In this document: positions 1-20,931 of the stretch, in pieces
How positions within the stretch are numbered: the first letter of the stretch is position 1
Layout: each line of letters opens with the position of its first letter
Assembly (NCBI RefSeq): GCF_000003605.2
Contig: NW_003107093.1
Coordinates: 15,923 to 47,839 of the forward strand
Reading direction: 5' to 3'
Origin: Saccoglossus kowalevskii
Lineage: Eukaryota > Hemichordata > Enteropneusta > Harrimaniidae
DNA: 31,917 bases
Notes under the pieces: generated by a model
What the model saw: the letters and a program-made list of their open reading frames with translations, nothing else
Database searches by the model: none
Told to the model about the DNA's origin: nothing
Program-made: the position numbers and the translations under genes

Positions 1-225
1 TATTGATTTCATGCATATATTATGTCTTATAACAATGTGACATGGCCGACTGGCTGCCATTTTAGTCCTATAATACCTGCCTACATGCAGATTTTATTAG
101 TTGGCATAAATAACTACAAATCATTTTGTATACTCAACAATCAATGTATACAATCTGACTTTTATGAATTTACAAGTGCTTGTGGTTATCATGATTTATC
201 ACAATGTTAATTATTCTGTTCACAG
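1..225 (+). other. Intron upstream of the first visible SFMBT exon
   Basis: AT-rich sequence ending in the acceptor at 224-225. Its short open frames resemble no family and have no splice-consistent link to the next exon. Confidence 0.6.
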
Positions 226-3200
226 AGTATCAGGTAAATCGACACCTCTCAGCCCTGGTAGAGACTTGTATCAGAAGATGAAAGAAGGGCCACCAAGAAC
301 TGATGAATCTGGAGAAGAAGGTGAGCAAGGGCACATTGGTTTCATGCAGCCATTATTGTGGTTAACCAACCATGATTAGTCCCCGTTCGAACGCAGTCTG
401 CTTTGACCTCTGTGCTTCCGTGCGTGCATGCGTCCAGACCTGTATCTTAGAAATGCCTGAACCATAAATGTGGTTCTCGTGCCATATCTCTGACTTGCTG
501 TGACTGATTATGTAAAAAATTTTAAATATTCATTATACATCATGTCATAGATATACAGATATATTGGTTTGACGATCCTATTAAAAATGGGCCGAATGGT
601 GGCCTTTTTTGTGCTAAAAAATCATCAAATATCAAGCATTTCTGGGATTTATGGATGGATTTTGTTCAAACTTGGTACATACATTCGACATTACAGGTTC
701 CTGATGCACGTCATTATATTTTTCAGATCAGATTCAAAATGGCTGACTAGTGGCGATTTTGTTTTAATGAATGGACTTCTAGAGCCATATCTTTGACATG
801 CTTTGACTGACTGTTCAAATTTTATATATTCATTATACATGTATTCAAAATGGCTGATTTTGTTTTAATTAATGCTGTTCCAGAGCAATATCTCTCAATA
901 CTCGTTTGACGATCAGATACAAATGTCAATCATTTAAATGTTAAACCATCATCATAATCATATTCCTGACATGTTTATATTCCACCTATATTACTATAAA
1001 CAAAACTATATATCTTAAATTTGATAACTAACGGGGACTGTTCCGTGCATGGCTTGTTGTATGTTGAATTTCTCTCAATTACCGAAGTTGAAAATCTTAA
1101 GTCAGTCTCTAGGTCTTGATTTTCAGGAATATGTAACAGGCGAGGAATGAACTCAAGTAACGAGTAGAGTATTATTTTTAGAATATTATTTTAGAAGAGT
1201 ATGTAGTCAACTGAACAATTTCTACTTCTATGTGGAAATATTTAGTTGCTAATAGGTGAAAATGTTCGTAATAGATCTCTCATTAATATGTGTTTAGTGT
1301 CATCAAGTTAATCATAATCATGGCTAAATGTGACAGATTTTAGAGAACCTGAAAAATATTCCCAAGCGTTGTCGCCCAGTGTCTTAAACCTGTGCATCCT
1401 GTGAAGTTGCATCTTCATTCAATTTGTCATTCAACATTATCAGTTCCTTTTTTTTGTGTTGTATATTTATTAGGTAAAGCCTCGCATTGGAGTCCCAAGA
1501 TTTACTTCAATCATAAATGTTTTTCTGGGCCATACCTTAATAAAGGCCGTATTGCTGAATTACCACGGGCTGTGGGTCCTGGTATTGTTACCTTAGTGCT
1601 AAAGGAAGTAATATCACTGCTTATCAATGCAGCATATAAACCACCCAGGGTTCTTAGAGAGTTACAAGTACAACATGAAGAAACTGCTGGAATGAATGGA
1701 CATTTACAAGTCATGAAAGCAAAGTATGTTTTAATTTCTTTCTTAAATATCTCAAGATGCAAGCAATTGATAGTGCTCAATGACTTGTTTTACATAATAT
1801 TTCACAAAAAACAATTGCTATTGATCTTGAAAACCAGTTGGTTATGATCAAATCTAAATTTAAATCTTTGTTAATGTACAAAATTTCTGAGAACACTTGT
1901 ACAATTGCAAACTATGTGTTTGTAATTAAAGAATGTACATTTTTACAGATATAAAAGTAAAAGTTACAGAGCAATGGTTGAAATCTGTAAAAATGCTGAC
2001 GAGGTTGAGAGTTTCTGTAGAGATATGTGTATAAAGTTAGAATGTTGTCCAAATTTGGTTGCATTGGACCAGATAGAAGACAACTGCCCAGAAAACTGTT
2101 CAACACTCACAAAGACAAAATACAGTGAGTAATGCTTAATTATTTATTTAATAAATATGAATATTTGACTACTATACCGGTCTATCTAAGCTATCACCTG
2201 ATGTATAGGTGGTTGTAGTAGTATGCTTAGTGAGCTTTAGAGAATATCTGAATCACAGGTTTTTAACTCATTTGTCATTGTTGGTATATTAAAGCACAAG
2301 GAAAATATTGTCATAAATCAAGTGCCTATAACGTTTCTAACTAATTTCATCCAGCACACTATTATGGGAAGAAAAAGAGAAGCAGGGTTGGTAGACCTCC
2401 GGGCGGACACAGCAACCTTGAATATGGACCAAAGAAACCAGGCAAGAGAAGGAAAAAGAGAAAGCCGTTTGTACACAGAAAGAAAAGAACATCATCCAAT
2501 GAGGAAGCTGGAGGAGGTTTGGAAAATGGTGAAGAAGAGGAAGTTAGTGAAAATGAGGAAGAAGATGAAGAGGCATTAGCCATAAAGAGGAGAAAGAAGG
2601 AAGAACGCAGGAAAGAAAAAGAAAAGAGGATGGGATTGAAAAGACCACTAATCATGACAAGAGCCAAAGCTCTGTTGGAATCAGCAAAGAGGGCCAAGGT
2701 AAAATAGATCATACTAATCAGATAGAGGGCCAAGGTAAAATAGATCATACTAATCAGATAGAGGAAGATATCTACATTGCCCATCTGTCTGTAACTTTAA
2801 ATATCCATCATAGGATATTAATCAAACATGCATTCTAATTTTATTTTGAATTCAGCTTCCACACAAGATGGTTTTACCTGATAGAGAACGTGGAAAGAAG
2901 ATGAAAACTCGGTTTGGACACATTCATAAAAGTCATCATCATCATCATCACCATCACCATGCAGGCAGTAGCAATGTCACTCATAAAATCAAAAGTGAAA
3001 CTAGAGTAAGTTGTAACTCAGTTAATTACATTTTGAATCTAATTTAACATAATTTTCGATAATTTCAATGTAAGAACATCCATAGTGTTAAAAATATTCA
3101 GTGTTGAACTAGTGTGTTCTACCAAGCAAGCTCAGTATAATTTTATAACAACCTGTTTGTTGATGATTTTCTGATTTCAGGATAGAAATAACGAAGATTT

Positions 3201-3555: not shown

Positions 3556-4843
3556 ATGGAAATTTCGACTGTCAAGCCATGTGTTTGACGTAGACTACAA
3601 TTATATTTTAAAACATCTATATCAAAGTGTTTTGGATTAATACTGCGGTTATGGGTTTTGTAACGTAGAAGTTAGTTAGAAAGCACATGTAACATGTTGA
3701 GTACATTGTTTATGCAGCATGGCATTAAAAATATACTAATGTAACATTACATTAATTGCAAAATTGCAAACAGACTGGGCTTAGCCAATATGTTGTAACA
3801 AGGAAATATCAAATTGTAAAAAAATATTACACCACCATGAAATGGTTTGGTAAAATGCACTAATTTAATGCAATTTGCAGTTATTAGTTGCCATGACAGC
3901 AAGCTGTTATGCATGTTGATGGAGTGACTCTATAAAATAGAAATGATGCATAGTTTACTAATGACAAGATCGGTTAAAATAAAAGTAACCAGTTTCCTCA
4001 TGGACTATAAAATAAATGTAATTTTGTAATATAAATTAATGTACAGGTAGTTAGGAAAACCTATTAATCCAGTATCTGCTTGAATTGTGTGGTGTATTTG
4101 TATTTTATTACTAGTATCCAAAATACACTGGACACTTTGTTAGTTAACGGCTTATTTTTCAGAAACAACCAAACAATATATGAGAAGGGGAGAATTATAG
4201 TCACATCATGATTTAAACAATTATTTGCAAAACTATGATTACTTAATCTGTTTTGAATGAACTATTGTTTTTGTAATCAGGAGTGCATTGGTAACTGAAC
4301 AATCTACTTAGAGTTCTTTTAACGTCACATCACAAGGTCTTGCTTCAACAATGCTTAATGAAGAAGAAATACGTCTATTTATAATTGGAATTGTTTTATT
4401 TTTATGAAAACTGTATATTAGTCCATTGTGATATTTTCACTGGTGTGTCGTGCATTTTTTTACACGCAGTACAGAAAAGAAACTACTTTAGTTCCAAGTA
4501 AAAAAAAAAAATTGTCTACAAAAAATAATGTGACTAAGTACTATTAACTCTAGAATTGATAGTGTATTTAAAAATGTTTATTTCAAGAAGTGGATTTAAC
4601 TTGAATTTAAAACTTTAATAATAAAACAGCCACTGCCATATTTCATAAATTTGTATATTAGATGTAATGAAAACCACATATTGGTTGATCGGATACCGGT
4701 ATTATGATTTTATTAAAGTGGAAGTCTAGGCAAACAACATGAAAATGCTCCACAAATTAAGGAGAATGCAATTTACAGTTATGTTAATATAATTTTTCAT
4801 TCTCTAGATGTTCAACTTTTATTCAATATTGTGTAATCCACCA

Positions 4844-5314
4844 CCTTGATTCTCCAGGAGAGGATTATGGGTAAAGTGTGACATCATAGTCACTGTTGTG
4901 AAAAATTAAGAAATTTATTTCATCTATAACTTACTAATGCAAATTAGTTCAAAATTATAACAATAGAAATTAGAATGTTACAAATACACAAAAAGTAAAG
5001 GTGTTGCCATAAACATGTAAAATAATCATTTTGGTCATTAAAAGTAGAATAACACTTTATTGTTCCTTTTTTTGTCATCAACGGTTTATATATAACCTGG
5101 ATAACCCCCTCTCATTGGTAAAAAATGAATATCTTCAGTTCTGTTGCCATGCCAACTATTTTGTATGTATGGTTGGGAAGGACACGTGTATATTGCTACT
5201 ATGTTGTGAACTTTCAAACAATTTGAAGTTAGACATGAAATCTTTTTTCAATTTCTCAAGAGGGAATATGATGTCCTATACTTTACCCATAATTATTTGT
5301 TGGAGAATCAAGAT
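4844..5314. repeat. Inverted (foldback) repeat downstream of SFMBT
   Basis: Arm 4844-4887 (CTTGATTCTCC...ATTATGGGTAAAGT...ACATCAT) recurs as its reverse complement at 5268-5314, with a central spacer of about 380 bp. Similarity seems to continue inward at lower identity. If this lies in the SFMBT 3' UTR, the RNA would form a long stem. Confidence 0.75.
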
Positions 5315-7147
5315 AGTTGACTACATAATACTGATGAAAAATTATATAAAAAACTGTAAATTGCCTTTCCCCACATTTGTAGAGCTCTTTCATCTGGGAG
5401 CATTGTTAGCCTGGACTTAATCCATGAACTGACTATACAAGTGCTGTAAATATTACAGCAACTTTAAATAAAAATAGTTTTCATTTGAAAATAAAATAGG
5501 ATAAATGTAATTTTCATTGAGAACTGTCCCGATTGAAAAGGGATTGTTTTTATTCTTGTGTTATTTGTCAATGAAATGGGTAAATATCTTTTCGTTTCAT
5601 CAAAATTTTAAAAGAGTACATGACATAAACATGGCATGTTGGAATAGAGGATTCTATGCAAGTGAATTGAGGTCATGTGTAGTTAGGTACAACCTTTGAC
5701 CCTTTTGCTTTCCATGCAAAATTTTAGTGCAAACATTTTTGCAGTTCCTTAGTTGTCTTTTAATTGTGACCCAAGGAACTTTGTGTACAGGTTGTGGTTG
5801 CAAGTCCTGATTGAATTAGATTATTGAATAGATTCAGAACATACTGAGAATTAAGGCGAGGAAAAAGGGTCAATGGTTGCAACTGGCTGTACATCTGTTT
5901 CTCAGAATCTTTTTTTTTTTTTAATGAACTCAACTTGTAGTTGGTTTATGAAATGATTCAGAAACTGCTTACAGAAGGCGACTCATTGATAGAGATGAGT
6001 CTGTTTTGTACAGTTATTAATGAAATGTTAGTGCCTTTATGATTCATGCTTTTCAGAAAGAAAGAACCATATATGTGTTGAGTAAGATAGCATTGGTGTA
6101 TCTTAAGTAAAAGGGTGGGTAGTTTGATATGTGCCGTCGTTTTGGATATCTCCCTAATAATTATAACAATATTTCTAACCCCAAACCTAAGTAAGCCCTT
6201 GTACAATATTGACTCTAATCTACCCAAACTTTAATTTTTTTCCAGAAGCATTTAATCAAAAATTGTGTTTCTATGACAATAATTACTACACCAGTGCCAT
6301 ATTAGTATTAATGTGGATCTGAATATGTTTTGTGTGCATAGCCATGAATATCTTAGACTAATTGGCCGACAATATAGCTGAGCTGCTTTCAGGAAGCCAA
6401 GAGATGATTATCAGATTTGGAGGCAACATTGCTTGCAACATCGCTGCCAATTAGCTTACTATATTGCTGGCTTGGTTTATGAAACATTTACGGTCACAGT
6501 TAAAATATCAGAGGGGAGTTTTGCTTTGACCATTCTGTGTTGTAACTTTTTAAGTCAAGTGAACAATAACTGTTTTTTTAAGATATCCTGCTGATTTGTT
6601 ATTTCTGTTCACTTTTCATTACTTTCAGTATTTAGATAGCCTAAAATGATTGGGGGGGGGGGTTCCTAACCTCTGAAATTTGGTGGCATGTGAACAAAAA
6701 ATTGGGTCGCTGACAACATCAAAAGGTAGTACAGAACTATGTAAATATATGACAGTTACAGTAGTTAATACATGGAAGATAGAAAGTATTCTGATGTGAG
6801 AATATGTGTGCATTTACTCACCCATATTTGTGACACTATATTGATAAACTTAAATTCTACTTTGCAGTGTGGGTTTTCAAGTTATAGTGCCAGATTACAA
6901 CAACAAAAAACTACCAATAATCAAAATTACAGTTTAGATATAGATGCTTAGTGTGAATAGAACAATGCTACTACATAAATGTTTAGAAATAATTCATTAG
7001 CTTTATTTTGCAAAAAAGTTTTCCAATAAATATTTCCATTGAGGGGGGAATATAAAGTATATTTTTGAATTTGTAAGTTTCAAGAGAAATTGCATTGTTT
7101 TTGTAAAGATGAGATTCTGGGATGGTAAACATGCCTGTATGCAGCTA

Positions 7148-11900: not shown

Positions 11901-14900
11901 GTCCTCGCGCCATTGTTATCATTATTAAATAAATGTCAATCCTGACATGAGACTTTCAAACTTCATGAATTGTTCCGACCAATAGTGTACAGTGGCTATA
12001 CTTCGAGCCAAATCACAGCCACAAGATAAAAACTTTAGGAATTTAGGAAAATGTGAGAATGAACATTAATGCTTCCACCAGGATAGCAACTTATTTCCAA
12101 TGGAATCCACAATGATGCACCAATAATTTTACACATGCTAGAATATCTCACCTGTCTACATCTGCGGTTGTCATGGCAGCAAAAACAAATGCTTCAGTAA
12201 CACCATTAACAGACAACAGAAGCACATACACACAATACCATCGTAATAGTGTTGGTCCTGTAAAACAACATAACATAGTGAGTTTACATACATATTTTGT
12301 ATAAAGGATTTATAAGTCTAGAGATAAGAATTGCAGGATCTATCTGTTTTCATGTAATGCTTCTTGTTTTTGATTGCACAAATACAAACACTCACAAATA
12401 AAAATACATGTTTCCACTATTTTGCATATTGCATCACAGAAAAACAGAGAAGCAGAAAACAAGGAAATGAAATATAAACTCAACAACAAGGAGACTGAAA
12501 TCTGTACAAGCAGAACACCAAAGAATAAAATCTGTATAAACAGAACACCAAAGAGACTAAAGTTTCTCTAAACTGAACATCAAGAAAGACTAAAATCTTT
12601 GTACACTAACAACAACAAAATGAAAATCTCTAGACTGAACACCAAAGGGACTGAAATCTATCTAAACTGAACACCATTAAGGTCGAAATTTTTCTAAACT
12701 AAACACCAAAGCAACTGAAATCTCTCGAACTGTTCATTAAAGCAACAGAAAACTGTCTAAACTGAACACCAAAGAGACTGATATCTTTCGAAACTGAACA
12801 CTAAAGACACTAAAAACTTTCTAAACAGGACACAAAAGGGACTGAAATCTAAAATAAAAGGAGACAAGTCATTGTCAAAGTCCCTCTAATACAGAAGTGA
12901 GATATTTAATATGACCTGATGTATGTGTGAAATTTAATCGTCATTGGCGCGGGTATGAATAAGGTATGGCTTTGTGGAACAGCATTCGTTTTAAACAAGA
13001 TTGCAGCTAATTGGATTTAATAGTGACAAGAATGCACATGTGTTTGTTTGATGTGTTGTCTGATGTATGTGTGAAGTTTGAATTTTTGAACGATCCAGGC
13101 ATGTCGAATATATGTATCATAAATAGCTTTATATGAAAAATGGCCACCAGTTAGCCATTTTGAACCCTTATGCATAAAATAAAATGACGTGCATCAAGGT
13201 CCCATTATGTTCAATGTATATACCAAGGTGTAAACGGGGACCATTAAAATATTGTGAGGTAATAGTGGATTCCCATGGATACGGTTTACAATCAGTATAT
13301 AATTATTAAAATAATATAATATTTAGAAACACAAAATTGCAGTTGAAAACTATTCGAACAATCACATCCACGGTGATTTTGCAGATTTAAATTCAAATCA
13401 TTGTGTAAATATTCACAAAGATTGGCATAGATGCCCCAAAATGAGAGTTCATTTTATACATGCTTGAGTTAACATAATTAACCCTAAACTTTACAGTACC
13501 AGGAATGATAATAATACCCTAGAATTATAATTCAAAAATAACTTTAAAAATTTATTTCAGGGCATACAGTGGAAAATAATATTAATACTGTGACAGTAAA
13601 AACATGATACATGAACTCTTTGTTTATTCTCACCTGGTCCATTACTTAAATCATCACCACCATAAAGGTGTAAGAGTAGATGTGAGTAGGAATATCCAAA
13701 CACTGCTATTGTTAGACCAATAATAAATACAAACCCAAGTAAATACTCCAACACTTTGCTTGCTAAATCCATCGATTTCTAATCAAATTAAAACAAAATA
13801 TCATTAAGCCAGGAAGGCTGACACACCATCTACAAATAATAACTACTGTAAAATACTTTATTTTCGCTGAAAAGGCTCTTTGGGCGTTTTATATGGAATT
13901 TATTTTCCCTGATTTTTGATGAGTTTAATGCGAAATATAGGAAAAAAAGTATATTTGCTGGATTTTATTTTCACGAAATCATCCCTTCAGTGAAAATAGC
14001 GAAAATAAATTCCAAGCAAAAATATAGTATTCTACAGTATTTTTTTTCATTTCGTAGTCATCAGAAAATTAATAATCAAGACATCTGTTTTTCCATTGCA
14101 AGTAAAAGTTGTAGCATATAAAAAAAGCACTAGAACATCAGAATGAAAATGACACACCCCCTCCACAATGAAAAAAATATCTGCTTCTAAAAATACACCA
14201 TGACACACTAATAACAGTACCAGTATGTTTCAGTTATTCCTATGTAGAGGCATAACAAACAACAGATTTGTGTTTCTGGTGTTCATGCACATAAGCAAAT
14301 TGTTAGCATATAATTTTTTTTTATTGGCATTTTAATTTCTAATATAAGTTTGTCCTCCATGATAAAATACCAAAACCACTTTTTTTATGCATATATAATT
14401 TTGTATTTTATTGCTGCAACAATTAATAACTATTAAAATACATCTGTCAACGTAACGCCATAAGTTACAGCTGTAATTTTGCGGCATTTTACAGGGTATT
14501 TTCATCCTACCATATTAGGAAATGAGAGTTCCAAATATGGAACAATTACACAGGTACCGGTAAGCGCCCTCTAATAATAAAAACAAATATGGTGGCCAGA
14601 CCCCATACAAAAAGGTTCGCTAAATCTATTCTGAACTTTTTGGATTTCGGCATTCCCATGATGTATCATTGTGAGGAAAAGATGTATAAAAATAAGGTTA
14701 TTACGAGGATACCGCAAAGTATGCACTCAGACAGTACGCTGTCACATCGACCTCCATTGCGCATCGAGCGATACTCCCACTGTACTGTCTTCATGCATAC
14801 TTTCATAATATTAACACTGGTGCATCACAATGCAGCAGTCATTCACATTATTTGGATTCAGTTAAGTGAATTTAAACTGTTAGTTAGAAAAACTTTTCTC

Positions 14901-17900
14901 CATGACCTTTGTCACCCAATGAATACAGGTCAACATTTTTGAAAGAATATGGAAAAAATATGTGTGTCTATTTCAAAAATGCTGAAAACATTAGATTTTA
15001 AATTGAAATCTCATTGAAATTAGTACCTAATTTATCCCAAATTTGATGTAGAACATTTTGAATAAGCTACGTACTTTTGGTTGATCTTTCACTGGAATAC
15101 CACGTTCAAGAGTTTGTGCAAAGAACAAATATGCGCTATCCTCCAGAGGAAAAAATATGAATCTAGCGGCGAGGGATCCCAAGTTACTGATAATGTCATA
15201 GACTCCCTGCTCACTGAAATTTATTGTCCCAAAAAATGTCATGATGTATCTTTCACCTGTAAAAAATGTAAAATTAATCATATTAATAAAAGAGTCACAG
15301 TCAATAATTTTTATGTCTTTAAAAAATAAGCCTAAAGTGAAGGTAAGAGACAGTAACATTGGTCCAGAGAAACAGGAACTTCTGCCATCTTGAATAGAAT
15401 CACAACAAATAAAAATATTCAAATCGCCCCAGTCATCTCCGAGAACAGGCTGCAAATAAGTATTAAAATGTAATGTATTACCGTACAAAAATAATAACAG
15501 TCAGATGCAAACATATCATGTGATATAACCAAGTTTGAACATAATTAATCATAACATGCCAGGGAGGCAGGCATGCAGGCAGGCAGGCAGCAGGCAAGCA
15601 GGCAGGCAGGCAGGAAAATAATGAAAAAACAAAATGGTCATTGGTTGGCCATCTTAAATCAGATCTCCAATCTAATAACCTGCAACCAAATATATCTTGT
15701 CATTCTATCAAGTTTGATTGGAATTGGCCAAGTCGTCTGTTACAACTGATTGTGAGCATGTTCAGGCATTAAGACTTAGCGCAATTCAATTTGAAGAAAT
15801 ACATTTTGTATCATAGTTGAGCATGCACCACATGATGATAGTAAATCAGTAAGTGCTCTTGTCTTACCTTCTGTTAAAATCTGTTTCATAAAACCTTGTT
15901 TGAAAAAGCTCCAAGTTAACTTTGCTAGAGTATGATCAGTCCATTTCTTTGAAAAGGAAAAAAAATACAATAAGAAATAAACCTTCTAGATATACGGGTA
16001 TATGGATATATATTATCCATGTTAGTGATTAGAATCCAAGTAATAGATAAAACCAGTATTGAAAAGTGTTACAGATGTTTTAAATAATACACTATGAAAG
16101 TATGCAATTATTTTTTCCATTATAGATGAAAACACTATCAACTAATAGTTTAATCAAACATAATTGTTTTGTTATATATTTCAACGAACTAAAGCCGATC
16201 ACTGCAACATGAATGCTGTAATTTTTTTCTTGCCCTGGGTACATTGACAGCACTCAGAACAGGCATTTTTACGTTTCATTCTCCACCTTGAATGCCACCA
16301 GCCTGGCACGAAAGCAATATGGTTTTTAACGTTGGGCAGCCAACATTGGAGTCAACTCCGCTTCTGGTCAAGCAGATAACCTTATTCACTACGGTATATT
16401 CAAATATCATTCAAAACACTGCTCAAATGTAAAATGAGATGAATTGCTGTATCTGTACTCACATGACCTGGGTTCCTTTTTGGAAAAATATCTCTAGTGT
16501 TCTTGAGTGGAAAAGATTTATCCCCTGATGTTTTGATATAGTTTATAAAATATGCATAGTATAATACAACATACAGAATGGTGAAGGCGAGCTGAAACAG
16601 ATCAGATGATATCATAGTACTCGTATATATGCATCAATATCTATTTGTAGTGATTTTGTAAGGGAAAAACCTCAAGCAGTGAGATAAGTACACAAGTAGA
16701 CAATTATATGCAGTTTTATGAACCATATAAAGCAAATCTGTTCAAATACTATTATACAAATTTCTTATTGATTGAGAATTTATACAAGAAATCATAGTTA
16801 GTGCTTTTACTATATTAGTTTTACCATATACAACCTCTTACCTGTGCCCAACAGAAGGTAATGATACCCCAGTGTGGGAAGAATAATACTAATATTACTG
16901 TTAACACTGATCTAAAGAATACAGCCAAGCCTTCAACAATAACCTGGTATGAAAGAGAAAACGTGCATGTTATAGATTTTGTAATAACATATTGTACATA
17001 CAGTTTTCAGTACACAAATATTAATATGCCATGCTTGTAATGCACAAGTTATTCTAAAAAACAAACAAATACACAATATCTAAGTTAAAGAGAGAAGACA
17101 ATGTTATGTCTGTTATAAAGCATACACATGACCACAGTCCCTCTATCATAGATAGAGGGACTGTGACATGACCAACAAGTCTGCACAGCAAATGGCTGAT
17201 ACTTCCATGTATCCATACACATAAAGGGTTGTGTTAGAATTCCTGCGAGTGGAATACCACATATCCCAGAATAGACTTTTGACCTGCTTAAGTCCTTTAA
17301 TAAATCTCATTTTTAGTTTCACTCCATTTTGCAGTAAATTTCACTAACATTTACAACATCAGTGAATACTTGATAGTTGATGCATATCCTGCTATTTTTT
17401 CATTTACTTCAAGTCATGTTTACCTACCTTAAGTTTCACAAACAACAGCACCTGTGCTATCACATAGAGTGGTTCTGCTAACAGTTCCAAGACAGCTGAT
17501 AAAGTGTAAACTACAACGCCTACAGAATAATTAGGTATTGTTTCAGGATTTGGAACTTCCAGGAAATACACCCAGAAATACGCCAGCGATAAACCACATG
17601 CCAATCCCAGTAGTACTCTGGAAACAAATAAGTTAGGAATATTATTAGGGCTATGGTAAATACCATGCTACACATTTATTTGTTTTTCTGTGTGATGACA
17701 TCTACCATTAAAAGAAACCTTATTGTAATTTTATTCTCCTTTAGATCTTAATTGTATACAATTTATTGAACTACAAATGTTTATAGAATGAGATGAAAAA
17801 AATATTAAGGTTAATTAAAAATGTATAAATAAATTTAAATATTTTGTTAAATCCACTAAGGGAAAAAGAATTCTGGTCCTGAGAATAGTATTATTTTTCA

Positions 17901-20757
17901 ATATTTTAGAAGAAATTGACAAAATAAATATTTTTTTGTTGGCAACTCACGAACATGCTTAAATGAAAGAGCAGTCCTGATTGGTTCAAAGAATTGAGAG
18001 CAAAACTTACGTGCACCAGAGCAAATTAATTATTTGCATCCACTTAGCATTAGATGTTTTACTAAAACAAGCTTTACGGAATGCTTCTCGGGCAACAAAC
18101 AAAGTTGTTGAATAGAGTAAAGTTAATCTGTTGAAATAATTCAGAAAACATAATGAAATCAATAGATTATAAAAATATATGTTGAATCAGATTCCTAGAA
18201 TTATATAACTTCAGAACATATACTTGTGTTTACACTACACTGTTGCTACACTGTTCTCCATGAACAGATCAGAATATGTATGACCTTTGTACTGTGAACA
18301 GCAGCCAATCACAAACCCCCAGTAGATGCACATGATGCAAACACATGAATAAATTGGTTGACATATTTGGAATAGGGCAAGTAAAGGCAGATCAATGATC
18401 AATGCAGGATACATATTTATGTGTCTTTGTTTTGATACAGTAGCTGTACTGGATTTCAAATTATAACTTGTGAATAAGTGTCTTAAATTTAATATGGAAG
18501 AAGTATCAACTTTGACAAGACACTCCCCCATCATCCATAACTTGCCCCTCCCCATCATCCAGATCCATATCACCCCATAACTTACCCTTCCCAACACAAG
18601 ATCCCCATCATCCAATAACTAGACCCTTCCCCCTCCCCAACACAAGATCCCTATCCCCCCATAACAAGATTTCCATCTCACCTGACATTGACAACCCCAA
18701 GCATTTCTTTTGAGATGTATCTTACAACAAATGCATTCAAAGCAAATGTTGTCATGCGAAATATCACCTGTAAAACAGACTACATTACTAGCATGTATGG
18801 ATGAACAGATACAATGTAACATTATATTTAAATTTGGTTTCTGATTTCACTGTCAGCAAGGCACTTTTTCCTTAAATAAAGACATTCTCCCATTACTGTA
18901 ACACTGTAAATTATCGAGAGAATATCTCCCAATCACATTTACTCTTCATTATCCCATATGAACATTGGTAACCCACACTTAAAAGAATTGTAATTTTGAA
19001 TGTTCTAAAAGCACATAGACCTCATAAATTTTGCAACCTGGAGTCATCACAAAATGTTTCCATATTGAGTAATTATCTCCTGACATTAGAGAATTCACTC
19101 TTAAAAACTGTTCATTTTCAAATCCTAGATGCATACCATCAACATAACATATGCAGAGACTGACATTGGATTATTTGGAGGCAGAGAATTCAAAGAAGTA
19201 TTTAGGAATGTCATCAGCTGACATCCATGCCTGAATATCCTTGCATTGAAAGATATAGAGTCCTGTATATTACAAGCTGTGACTCATGAAATGTGAACAA
19301 ATAAACGCTATGACGAGACAATAAATTTAAGCTTGTAAACATGTAGAAACATGTATGATAAAAATATTAGAATTTACAAAAAAATCATTCACTTCTGATT
19401 TTTCACTTTATTTGGTATGTCCAATTTTATTGTCTGTTCATTGTTTTTTGCATACCCAAAATAAATGTCTTGAAACATGGCTTGTGAATGGTTTAATTCT
19501 TACATATATTCTTCTATATTGACAGCCAATCAGAACCAGCCTTATAAAATGTGTTCTTTAAAACAAACAAGGCAACCATTCAGATAAATGTGTGAGATTT
19601 TATGACTGTACATGTAGGTTGTGTGTGTTAATTATTATACAATCCTCCCTCAGCTTTCATGCTTAACTGCTATTTAAGTAATTCAAAAAATCTACACATT
19701 GTGAAGATCTACTCCTTTGCATGATTGTCGAAAAACCTTGCATATGTAAACATACCATCTACACTCATTATTACGTAAAATGTGGCTGCATCCAATAAAA
19801 TCTAACTGCATGAACGTATGAAACTAATTTTAGTGAGCATTAGAGTACACATTGGAGTACAGGCAGACCATAAACACCATAGTCAGGTTTTTGGATAATA
19901 ATTTTGAGAACAAATCACATTCGTACACCAAATTGCACGTCCACCAAAAATAAAGTGTACAGACGAGGTGCATAGATGTCTATTGTACAGAAATGGTTTT
20001 CATTGTTTTAGTTACGGTATGAATCGTTATTCAATGGGGCTTGGAAACATCTACTATGCAAGCCATTCAAGGGCCATTGTGAAATGAAAGGGCGAGAACG
20101 CTTTCTTTTTTTTCCAAGAATTTGATTAACACACAACAAAGATTTGGTTCGAGAGAATAGCATTTGAATCTGATGTTTAGAACTATAGCAGAAACCATTT
20201 CAGTACCCATCTGTACTCCATGAACCTACAAACCACAAGCAAATGGCAGTCACAATTGTGTGCCACCCTGTCCTCATCTAAGTGATGCAGCTGGAATCAT
20301 ATAGACAATTACATATGTTCAATTGTGATGACATGGTCACACCATATGGATATCCACAATATATAACAACCCGTTTGAGTTGTATTAAATTACAGTACTT
20401 CGACGTGTTGTCCCCCCCCCCTTCCTTCGCTTTATTAACTGTACATATTTGACTGTCTTTTTAGCACGTACTAGTATTCTATAGATGGGTTAGCTGCAGT
20501 TCTAGATGGGTGCGTTTATGGCTTTAGTACCTGTACATTCATGTACATTCATTGTCATAGCTTTACTCACAAAGTAACGGTGCTTTACATTGGTGTACAA
20601 TGGGTCCAGATTGCGGGACTGTGATACACCGTACACGAACTCGGAGATCCATGATCTGATACAGAGGACTGCGATAATAGATACGTACCTGCAAAACCAT
20701 GTTATAAGTTGCCGATCGAGCTGCACTCGCCAGTGTCTTACTACTATCTGCCGCCAT
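8901..20757 (-). CDS. RFT1: RFT1 homolog, ER membrane protein for N-glycan lipid-linked oligosaccharide assembly (complete, 13 exons)
   Basis: Exons in transcript order: 20757-20689, 18767-18682, 18127-18011, 17617-17428, 16943-16842, 16591-16463, 15946-15868, 15256-15075, 13778-13634, 12257-12152, 11028-10900, 9922-9802 and 9077-8901 (TAA at 8903-8901). All junctions are GT-AG with matching phases, total 1632 nt or 543 aa; human RFT1 is 541. Family signatures in order: [24 protein letters not shown]-type [103 protein letters not shown] and [10 protein letters not shown]. These cover a polytopic protein with many hydrophobic segments. RFT1 is required for N-glycosylation at the ER; it was proposed to flip Man5GlcNAc2-PP-dolichol, a direct flippase role that is disputed. 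The ATG at 20757 fits (GGCGGCAGAT context, CGGCG before it). The gene is tail-to-tail with SFMBT. No frame breaks are seen. Confidence 0.96.
9078..12151 (-). other. RFT1 introns 12, 11 and 10
   Basis: Introns 9078-9801, 9923-10899 and 11029-12151 are AT-rich with poly-A/T runs (for example 11294-11306). A TATGCAAATTAAATTAATTA segment near 9399 resembles the octamer-bearing repeat at 26165-26425. Nothing else is recognisable; the small open frames have no domain. Confidence 0.5.
12479..12860. repeat. Degenerate minisatellite, about 12 units of ~32 bp
   Basis: Units of 29-35 bp repeat across RFT1 intron 9. The consensus begins CTGAACACCAAAGAGACTG and continues AAATCTNTCTAAA. Clear unit starts occur at CAGAACACCAAAG, CTGAACACCAAAG, CTGAACACCATTAAG and CTGAACACTAAAG. 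Copies are diverged by substitutions and small indels, so the array is old. A short open frame at its left edge is a by-product. Confidence 0.85.
13085..13245 (-). repeat. Reverse-oriented relative of the 378-1039 repeat
   Basis: The reverse complement begins GGTCCCCGTTTACACCTTGG and runs through TGATGCACGTCATT and TTCAAAATGGCTAACT. This matches in order CTTGGTACATACATTCGACA, TGATGCACGTCATTATATTT and TTCAAAATGGCTGACTAG at roughly 672-750 in the SFMBT intron. The end motif AACGGGGAC is shared too. Confidence 0.7.
13846..14037. mobile_element. TA-flanked MITE, 192 bp, in RFT1 intron 8
   Basis: The ends CTGTAAAATAC and GTATTCTACAG are near-perfect inverted repeats, each bordered by TA (13844-13845 and 14038-14039). 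Subterminal TTTATTTTCGCTGAA pairs with TTCAGTGAAAATAGCGAAAA, so most of the element folds back. No coding capacity. The TA duplication and short inverted ends suggest a Tc1/mariner-mobilised MITE. Confidence 0.8.
14716..14803. repeat. Inverted repeat, 22-bp arms, in RFT1 intron 8
   Basis: Left arm 14716-14737 (AAAGTATGCACTCAGACAGT, plus AC) and right arm 14782-14803 are reverse complements at 18 of 22 positions, with a 44-bp centre containing CpGs. It could be the core of a decayed foldback element. The rest of intron 8 (13779-15074), apart from the MITE, shows nothing recognisable. Confidence 0.6.
15561..15614. repeat. (AGGC)n microsatellite, imperfect
   Basis: Interrupted tetranucleotide run of GGCA/AGGC in RFT1 intron 7 (15257-15867). 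It reads as GCAGGCAG repeats on + and CCTG repeats on the RFT1 sense strand. Confidence 0.9.
17126..17172. mobile_element. 33-bp perfect hairpin insertion with 7-bp target duplication
   Basis: Arms CACAGTCCCTCTATC (17133-17147) and GATAGAGGGACTGTG (17151-17165) are exact reverse complements around the 3-nt loop ATA. The direct repeat ACATGAC lies immediately on both sides (17126-17132 and 17166-17172). It sits in RFT1 intron 4. The ends match the second hairpin at 20824-20843. It is read as two terminal inverted repeats joined with almost no interior. Confidence 0.8.
18528..18660 (-). repeat. C/G-asymmetric tandem tract with G-quadruplex potential in RFT1 intron 2
   Basis: The + strand is C-rich, with an imperfect repeat (CCCAACACAAGATCC twice, about 45 bp apart, and CCCATCATCCA units). 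On the RFT1 sense strand this gives GGGGGG-ATA-GGG, a 10-nt loop, then GGGG-A-GGGGG-AA-GGG. The tract starts about 21 nt after the exon 2 donor. Confidence 0.7.
18768..20688 (-). other. RFT1 intron 1
   Basis: A 1.9-kb AT-rich intron. It contains a C homopolymer (C10) near 20412-20421 and a T run near 20105. No exon or known repeat is recognised. Its right end near exon 1 is richer in CpG, consistent with promoter-proximal sequence. Confidence 0.5.
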
Positions 20758-20931
20758 GTTTAGGCAGTTACAATCAACCTCGTGTAGTAAGTCTAAACTG
20801 GAGAAATATCACATAGAACAAACCACAGTCCAGAGGGACTGTGAACAAACGAAAACAAATCAGCGATCAAACTGCCATCTATAAGCTAGTGCAATCACGT
20901 GTACGTCCCACCTGATTTGAGTTGAAAGGTC
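20758..20931 (-). promoter_or_regulatory. RFT1: RFT1 5' UTR and promoter region
   Basis: Immediately upstream of the RFT1 ATG. No TATA box is seen on the minus strand. It contains the short hairpin insertion at 20824-20843. The next + strand ATG with a hydrophobic leader lies at 20932, so the interval could be a bidirectional promoter if that frame is real. Confidence 0.4.
20817..20850. mobile_element. 20-bp hairpin insertion with 7-bp target duplication
   Basis: CACAGTCC (20824-20831), spacer AGAG, GGACTGTG (20836-20843). The direct repeat AACAAAC immediately flanks it (20817-20823 and 20844-20850). Its termini equal those of the hairpin at 17133-17165, but its flanks differ. It lies 67-86 bp upstream of the RFT1 start codon, probably in the 5' UTR or core promoter. 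Confidence 0.75.

What the first reader, a model, noticed from the sequence alone, without database searches (positions are those of the whole stretch)
17126..17172. Transposon reduced to almost nothing but its termini (33-bp hairpin with 7-bp duplication)
The 15-bp arms are perfect, the loop is only 3 nt, and a perfect 7-bp direct repeat (ACATGAC) abuts both ends. This is the mark of an insertion, yet there is essentially no interior. It could be a minimal mobile unit, or the remnant left when the interior of a larger element was lost and its ends joined. The start CACAG and 7-bp duplication do not match a superfamily I can name with confidence (hAT normally makes 8 bp).
Basis: partly seen in the sequence, partly recalled or inferred. 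Interest (0 to 1): 0.75.

Follow-up and report, generated by a model that had tools for sequence, protein, structure and literature searches.

The report
Scars left by departed P-type transposons
The tiny hairpin looks like the scar left when a jumping gene of the fruit-fly P-element kind cut itself out and the cell glued the break shut; this genome holds hundreds of similar hairpins, which still show how the enzyme cut and how the cell repaired the break.

Summary
The genome held (572 Mb) has 630 hairpins of 16-46 bp with these ends; the reversed control pattern has 1. Of 53 sites read with flanks, 47 have a 7-bp duplication with at most one mismatch, all different. Yet 49 of 53 hairpins differ from each other, which copies of a mobile master would not. 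The part kept from each transposon end stops at 17 nt (101 of 104 ends), and numbers fall steeply beyond 34 bp. P-element transposase cuts 17 nt inside its ends (PMC7776569, passages), which predicts this. A 7.9-kb element with ends of this kind encloses a P-type transposase, though that copy lacks a matching duplication. Best reading: excision footprint of a P-superfamily transposon, sealed by end joining; not a minimal mobile unit. Such footprints are known from Drosophila; a large natural series showing the 17-nt rule with 7-bp duplications is the new part.

The parts
17126..17132 (.). left copy of the 7-bp target site duplication, ACATGAC
17133..17165 (.). excision footprint 1, 33 bp: 16 nt of one transposon end, 2 nt filler, 15 nt of the other end; perfect 15-bp arms
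17166..17172 (.). right copy of the 7-bp duplication, ACATGAC
20817..20823 (.). left copy of the 7-bp duplication of footprint 2, AACAAAC
20824..20843 (.). excision footprint 2, 20 bp: 8 nt of one end joined to 12 nt of the other, no filler
20844..20850 (.). right copy of the 7-bp duplication of footprint 2, AACAAAC

Best explanation
Each hairpin is the excision footprint of a P-superfamily DNA transposon. The transposon inserted and duplicated 7 bp of target (shown by the duplications). Later a P-type transposase cut it out, cutting one strand at the element boundary and the other 17 nt inside, so that up to 17 nt of each end stayed on the chromosome with the duplications (inferred from the cap at 17 per end and 34 in all; established biochemically for Drosophila P). 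The broken ends were trimmed and joined, with little or no microhomology or with filler, some of it copied from the ends (shown in the sequences; the repair pathway is inferred). The two matching end pieces back to back read as a hairpin. Window copy 1 is 16 + 2 filler + 15; copy 2 is 8 + 12. The hairpin probably has no function of its own (inference).
For: Genome-wide: 630 sites of 16-46 bp, control 1; with CACC-type ends 111 sites of 16-34 bp, control 0. Duplications: 33 perfect and 14 with one mismatch of 53 sites, 47 different target sequences of 47. Middles differ: 49 distinct of 53. Cap: retained end length at most 17 in 101 of 104 ends, exactly 17 in 13; the longest filler-free footprints are 34 bp, as 17+17 (L010, L035). 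Sites by length: 564 at 16-34 bp, 66 at 35-46 (minus 97), 32 at 47-64 (minus those), 13 at 65-94; by subtraction, and nested sites can count twice. For family B the cap is not where the two ends stop matching: in the transposase-bearing element both ends agree for at least 25 bp, and of the 12 sites assigned to that family among the 53 none keeps more than 17 (11; C71 read). Templated filler: 6 of 27 sites with 4 nt or more of filler at p<0.05 by shuffling. Parent: inverted ends at C1630:10113 and 18054 enclosing exons that match the P-type domains RNaseH_N, GTP-binding insertion and RNaseH_C in order. A 318-bp element of the window's subfamily with 17-bp ends and a perfect 7-bp duplication. 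Passages read: P cuts 17 bp inside its ends (PMC7776569); Drosophila P breaks are end-joined from a 17-nt 3' overhang with microhomology and insertions (PMC5466332); Galileo of the P superfamily makes 7-bp duplications (PMC2775673).
Against: The C1630 element has no matching 7-bp duplication (AGTGGGT against GCAATAC), so its two ends may not come from one insertion. Its ends are of the AACACC subfamily; no transposase was found between ends of the window's own TATCAC subfamily, whose ends in the one complete copy read agree for 17 bp only, so for that subfamily the cap rests on lengths. Twelve ten-kb stretches cover all 13 P-type RNase H hits; only C1630 shows clear ends of this kind, L077 a weaker trace, and six of the 12 contain runs of N. 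One 59-bp site (C1346:213943) has a perfect duplication yet keeps more than 17 nt of one end. Six of 53 sites lack a clear duplication. A few identical hairpins occur at different sites. Five of the six templated fillers come from sites picked or noticed for being long. No empty site or intact allele was compared.
Confidence: 0.88

Rival explanations
1. Minimal mobile unit: the hairpins are very small non-autonomous elements that themselves jump with the help of a transposase.
For: Matching ends at hundreds of sites and 7-bp duplications at 47 of the 53 read. A few identical hairpins lie at different sites: one three times and two twice among 53.
Against: 49 of 53 are distinct, with joints at many positions and site-specific filler; a mobile unit would share its middle. 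Some identical cases are expected when few joints are possible (inference). Two transposase-bound ends on 20 bp is sterically unlikely (inference).
Confidence: 0.05
2. Interior lost by aborted gap repair or replication deletion rather than by end joining after excision.
For: Longer products exist: 32 sites of 47-64 bp and 13 of 65-94 bp; C1346 keeps more than 17 nt of one end.
Against: Deletion endpoints should be spread out; instead retained ends stop at 17 nt and the number of sites falls sharply after 34 bp.
Confidence: 0.04
3. Footprints, but of a transposon outside the P superfamily that also leaves long end remnants.
For: The window's own subfamily was not tied to a transposase here, and the C1630 copy has no duplication.
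Against: The end CAC[A/C]GTCCCTCAACACC is found in footprints and at both ends of an element with P-type domains. By recall, hAT, Tc1/mariner and piggyBac excision leaves no such long remnants.
Confidence: 0.03

Closest known systems
Drosophila P-element excision footprints
   Same: Up to 17 nt of each end left at the break and joined with microhomology or insertions (17-nt overhang and joining: PMC7776569 and PMC5466332, passages); duplications kept on both sides (recalled).
   Different: 7-bp rather than 8-bp duplications; other end sequence; a series preserved in one genome rather than recovered from laboratory crosses.
Galileo/Newton/Kepler (P superfamily, Drosophila)
   Same: 7-bp duplications (PMC2775673, passages: consensus GTAGTAC); the symmetrised consensus of 32 perfect duplications here is roughly RTYNRAY, agreeing at the outer positions.
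   Different: Galileo has long repetitive inverted ends (start of the abstract of PMC3573991 in the listing); here 17 to at least 25 bp. Transposases were not compared.
Zebrafish Pdre2/THAP9
   Same: P-type element outside insects with short ends starting CA (13 bp, CATACCTGTCAAC; PMC10983969, passages).
   Different: 8-bp duplications; no footprint series in the passages read.
MITEs
   Same: Short inverted ends with target duplications and no coding capacity.
   Different: MITEs share an interior copied from a master; these do not.

Membership tests
P-element excision footprint | Target duplication on both sides of the remnant | tested here: met
   47 of 53 sites with 7 bp at no more than one mismatch; both window copies perfect
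P-element excision footprint | No more than 17 nt of each end retained | tested here: met
   101 of 104 ends; length classes 564/66/32/13; one clear exception read, C1346
P-element excision footprint | End-joining marks (variable joints, filler, templated insertions) | tested here: met
P superfamily (parent element) | Transposase with RNase H split by a GTP-binding insertion domain | tested here: met
   C1630 element: PF21787 1.1e-27; PF21788 3.7e-6 in one exon and 6.7e-5 in the next (the latter just under Pfam's cut-off); PF21789 1.2e-6; in order on one strand
P superfamily (parent element) | Inverted ends around the transposase | tested here: met
   C1630:10113 and 18054, identical over the 25 bp read
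P superfamily (parent element) | Target duplication round the transposase-bearing copy | tested here: inconclusive
   absent at this one copy; a 318-bp element of the window's subfamily has it
P superfamily (parent element) | THAP DNA-binding domain at the N terminus | tested here: inconclusive
   no THAP hit in the 610-aa frame; upstream exons were not resolved
P superfamily (parent element) | GTP-dependent, 17-nt staggered cleavage | not testable with these tools
   needs purified protein
hAT superfamily | 8-bp target duplication (recalled) | tested here: not met
   abutting 8-mers differ at 4 or more places at each of 40 sites
Transib/RAG | 5-bp target duplication (recalled) | tested here: not met
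   7 bp
MITE (mobile in itself) | Interior shared between copies | tested here: not met
   49 of 53 hairpins distinct

The most novel reading that the evidence does not exclude
The genome keeps a natural archive of several hundred germline cut-and-repair events by P-type transposases, in which footprints may well outnumber surviving elements (surviving elements were not counted here). It shows that the 17-nt stagger, biochemically known from Drosophila P, holds across the superfamily, including elements with 7-bp duplications. The sites could be read as a germline record of end-joining choices.
Probability: 0.65. Interest if true: 0.7.

Novelty: new variant of a known kind. Interest (0 to 1): 0.6.

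Why it matters
The unusual 17-nt stagger of P transposase rests, in the passages I read, on Drosophila work. Hundreds of hairpins that stop at 17+17 suggest that it also holds for elements with 7-bp duplications in another animal, without an enzyme assay. The joints are a sample of natural germline break repair (overlap, filler, templated insertions). In practice, such 17-34 bp hairpins can be recognised by rule: target duplication plus at most 17 plus at most 17. No paper describing such a genome-wide set showed up in the listings, which cover open PubMed Central papers only and of which I saw only the top rows.

Tried and rejected
Prokaryote and virus collections: no hit among viral contigs for the 11-bp-arm hairpin. 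Three loci in genome contigs were looked at in part and set aside: one hairpin lies upstream of what I take for a ribosomal-protein gene (recalled, no call names it), two lie in the same larger palindrome with the same neighbouring sequence; by eye none has the 7-bp duplication.

No Rfam match in the window at the gathering threshold. Paper search for the end sequence: 0 papers. Transib/RAG was considered because of the CACAG start and dropped because of the 7-bp duplication. The C2789 pair of ends 2,405 bp apart was dropped as a parent: its flanks do not match, and the sequence just inside recurs elsewhere without the 17-letter end. The C4133 copy has one end but no second end where I expected it. 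A scan for ends plus 7- or 8-bp duplications at 11 of the 12 ten-kb P-type stretches found none. PDB sequence search with the transposase frame: no hit at 0.001.

Weak spots. The family-C reference ends had tails that I made up past the known letters, so the single 19-nt value there means nothing; two 18-nt values can be chance. Family-A tails came from L088 and L090, and part of the L090 tail belongs to another repeat. Pattern searches demand 8 exact letters at each end, so decayed footprints are missed. Eleven of the 53 sites were taken from a search for sites of 35-64 bp, which raises the share with filler: among the other 41 sites, 17 have no filler and 24 have some; all 11 long ones have some. 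The mismatch rate of 4.3% between duplication copies is among pairs already limited to one mismatch.

Full report
What is there. The finding is correct to the base: ACATGAC, a 33-bp hairpin with perfect 15-bp arms, ACATGAC. A scan of the window for inverted ends of 8 bp or more with abutting direct repeats returns this site and one more, 20824-20843, CACAGTCCAGAGGGACTGTG between two copies of AACAAAC. The same 8 letters at both ends, at another target and with another middle, is the first sign of a family. In shuffled windows two such hits within 60 bp occurred in 0 of 500.

Where it lies. The window looks like animal DNA (inferred from its genes; no call names the species). An Rft-1 domain and frames consistent with RFT1 (the N terminus is recognised from recall) put hairpin 1 in an intron of an RFT1-like gene. 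Hairpin 2 lies 67 bp upstream of its likely start codon (20757, minus strand). On one side is a gene with a SLED domain (SFMBT-like, name inferred), on the other one with Mucin2_WxxW and lustrin-type domains. The genome held for the window is 572 Mb in 4,830 contigs, unnamed.

A genome-wide family. CACAGTCCN{0,30}GGACTGTG has 630 sites; the reversed control has 1. One search listed 50 of them, 48 outside the window; I fetched the first 40 in list order. From a search for sites of 35-64 bp 15 loci came back: 10 new sites and 5 already held, one of which (L009) is better read in its longer form (L048). With 39 + 11 sites, the two window copies and one CACC-type site fetched later the set is 53. 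A 7-bp duplication is perfect at 33, has one mismatch at 14, and is absent or unclear at 6. All 47 good duplications differ. Their two copies differ by 4.3% on average, so the set is not brand new, although pairs with more mismatches were left out of that figure.

Not a small mobile unit. The ends are constant but the middles are not: 49 of 53 hairpins are distinct when the two strands are folded together. Each divides into a piece of one end, a piece of the other, and often filler (52 sites): 17 have no filler (overlaps of 0-2 nt) and 35 have 2-36 nt of it; without the 11 sites chosen for length, 17 and 24. In 6 of 27 sites with 4 nt or more of filler, the filler shares a longer run with the ends or near flanks than shuffled filler does (p<0.05); five of those six are among the sites chosen or noticed for length. 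This is what end joining of broken DNA looks like.

The 17-nt rule. Retained end lengths pile up at 16 and 17 and then stop: 16 ends at 16, 13 at 17, 3 above, of 104. Whole lengths follow: 564 sites at 16-34 bp, 66 at 35-46 (minus), 32 at 47-64 (minus those), 13 at 65-94. The longest without filler are exact 17+17 joins (L010, L035). I wrote this expectation in the notebook before the genome search first answered, from the known cut of P transposase: at the boundary on one strand and 17 bp inside on the other (PMC7776569, passages). Drosophila P breaks are joined from such a 17-nt overhang, with microhomology and insertions (PMC5466332, passages).

The parent. Thirteen matches to the P-type RNase H domain lie in the genome; 12 ten-kb stretches cover them all, six of them with runs of N. 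In one, L076, an end CACCGTCCCTCAACACC stands upstream of the transposase; it is the family-B footprint half with one letter changed. A search for that end found its inverted partner on the same contig, giving C1630:10113-18054, 7,942 bp. The two ends agree over the 25 bp read. Between them lie, in order, exons matching TNP-like RNaseH_N, the GTP-binding insertion domain and RNaseH_C. With 236 such 17-mers in 572 Mb, two in the right orientation round a P-type gene is very unlikely by chance (inference). Because these ends agree beyond 17 bp while the 12 family-B footprints in the set stop at 17 or before, the cap looks like a cut position and not the end of similarity. Against: this copy has no matching 7-bp duplication. 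For the window's own subfamily I have a 318-bp element with 17-bp ends and a perfect duplication, ATTTCAC, but no transposase.

Counter-evidence kept in view. C1346:213943-214001 is 59 bp, with a perfect duplication GTAGAAC, and keeps more than 17 nt of one end (not among the 53); it may be a small internally deleted element. Six of 53 sites have no clear duplication. The other fetched P-type loci do not show these ends clearly. Three hairpin sequences recur at two or three sites.

Comparison. It works like a Drosophila P footprint, and the parent meets the transposase and inverted-end tests for the P superfamily. The 7-bp duplication matches Galileo (PMC2775673, passages) rather than P itself (8 bp, PMC7776569, passages) or zebrafish Pdre2 (8 bp; PMC10983969, passages). 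hAT (8 bp) and Transib (5 bp) fail on duplication length (family values recalled).

Verdict. An excision scar: a known kind of event, with a mechanism known in a fly element, found here as a large natural series in another genome. New variant of a known kind; interest 0.6.

Noticed in passing
G000:C1630:10113-18054 (L076 7535-8590 and 9452-9802, minus strand): The P-type element carries, opposite to the transposase, an open frame of 351 aa without Pfam match at 0.001 and a C2H2-like frame; it could be an accessory gene or a nested element.
   Followed up: partly
C8 (two pairs) and C170 (one search list): Footprints cluster: 3 pairs within 5 kb among the 50 listed sites, against 0.25 expected, as local hopping or insertion hot spots would give.
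   Followed up: partly
L077 4137-4148 and 6909-6920: A second P-type transposase hit lies between inverted copies of CCCTCAACAAAG, resembling inner letters of the family ends; possibly a decayed relative.
   Followed up: partly
C532:541895-542212, query 17-79: A stretch of about 60 bp inside the 318-bp element recurs elsewhere, in places in tandem (for example C650, C3): another repeat family.
   Followed up: no
window 20616-20623, minus strand: A third exact CACAGTCC (13 of 15 letters of the longer end) without a partner or duplication seen nearby; may be chance.
   Followed up: partly
window 4814-5343: Inverted arms of 64 nt (78%) and 24 nt (83%) around about 350-400 bp, possibly an older MITE-like element.
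   Followed up: no
window 378-387 and 1030-1039: AGTCCCCGTT and its inverse AACGGGGACT about 640 bp apart (read), possibly the ends of another element.
   Followed up: no
window 12475-12867: Degenerate minisatellite with a unit of about 32 bp.
   Followed up: no
window 2688-2759: Exact 36-bp tandem duplication in or near an exon of the SFMBT-like gene.
   Followed up: no
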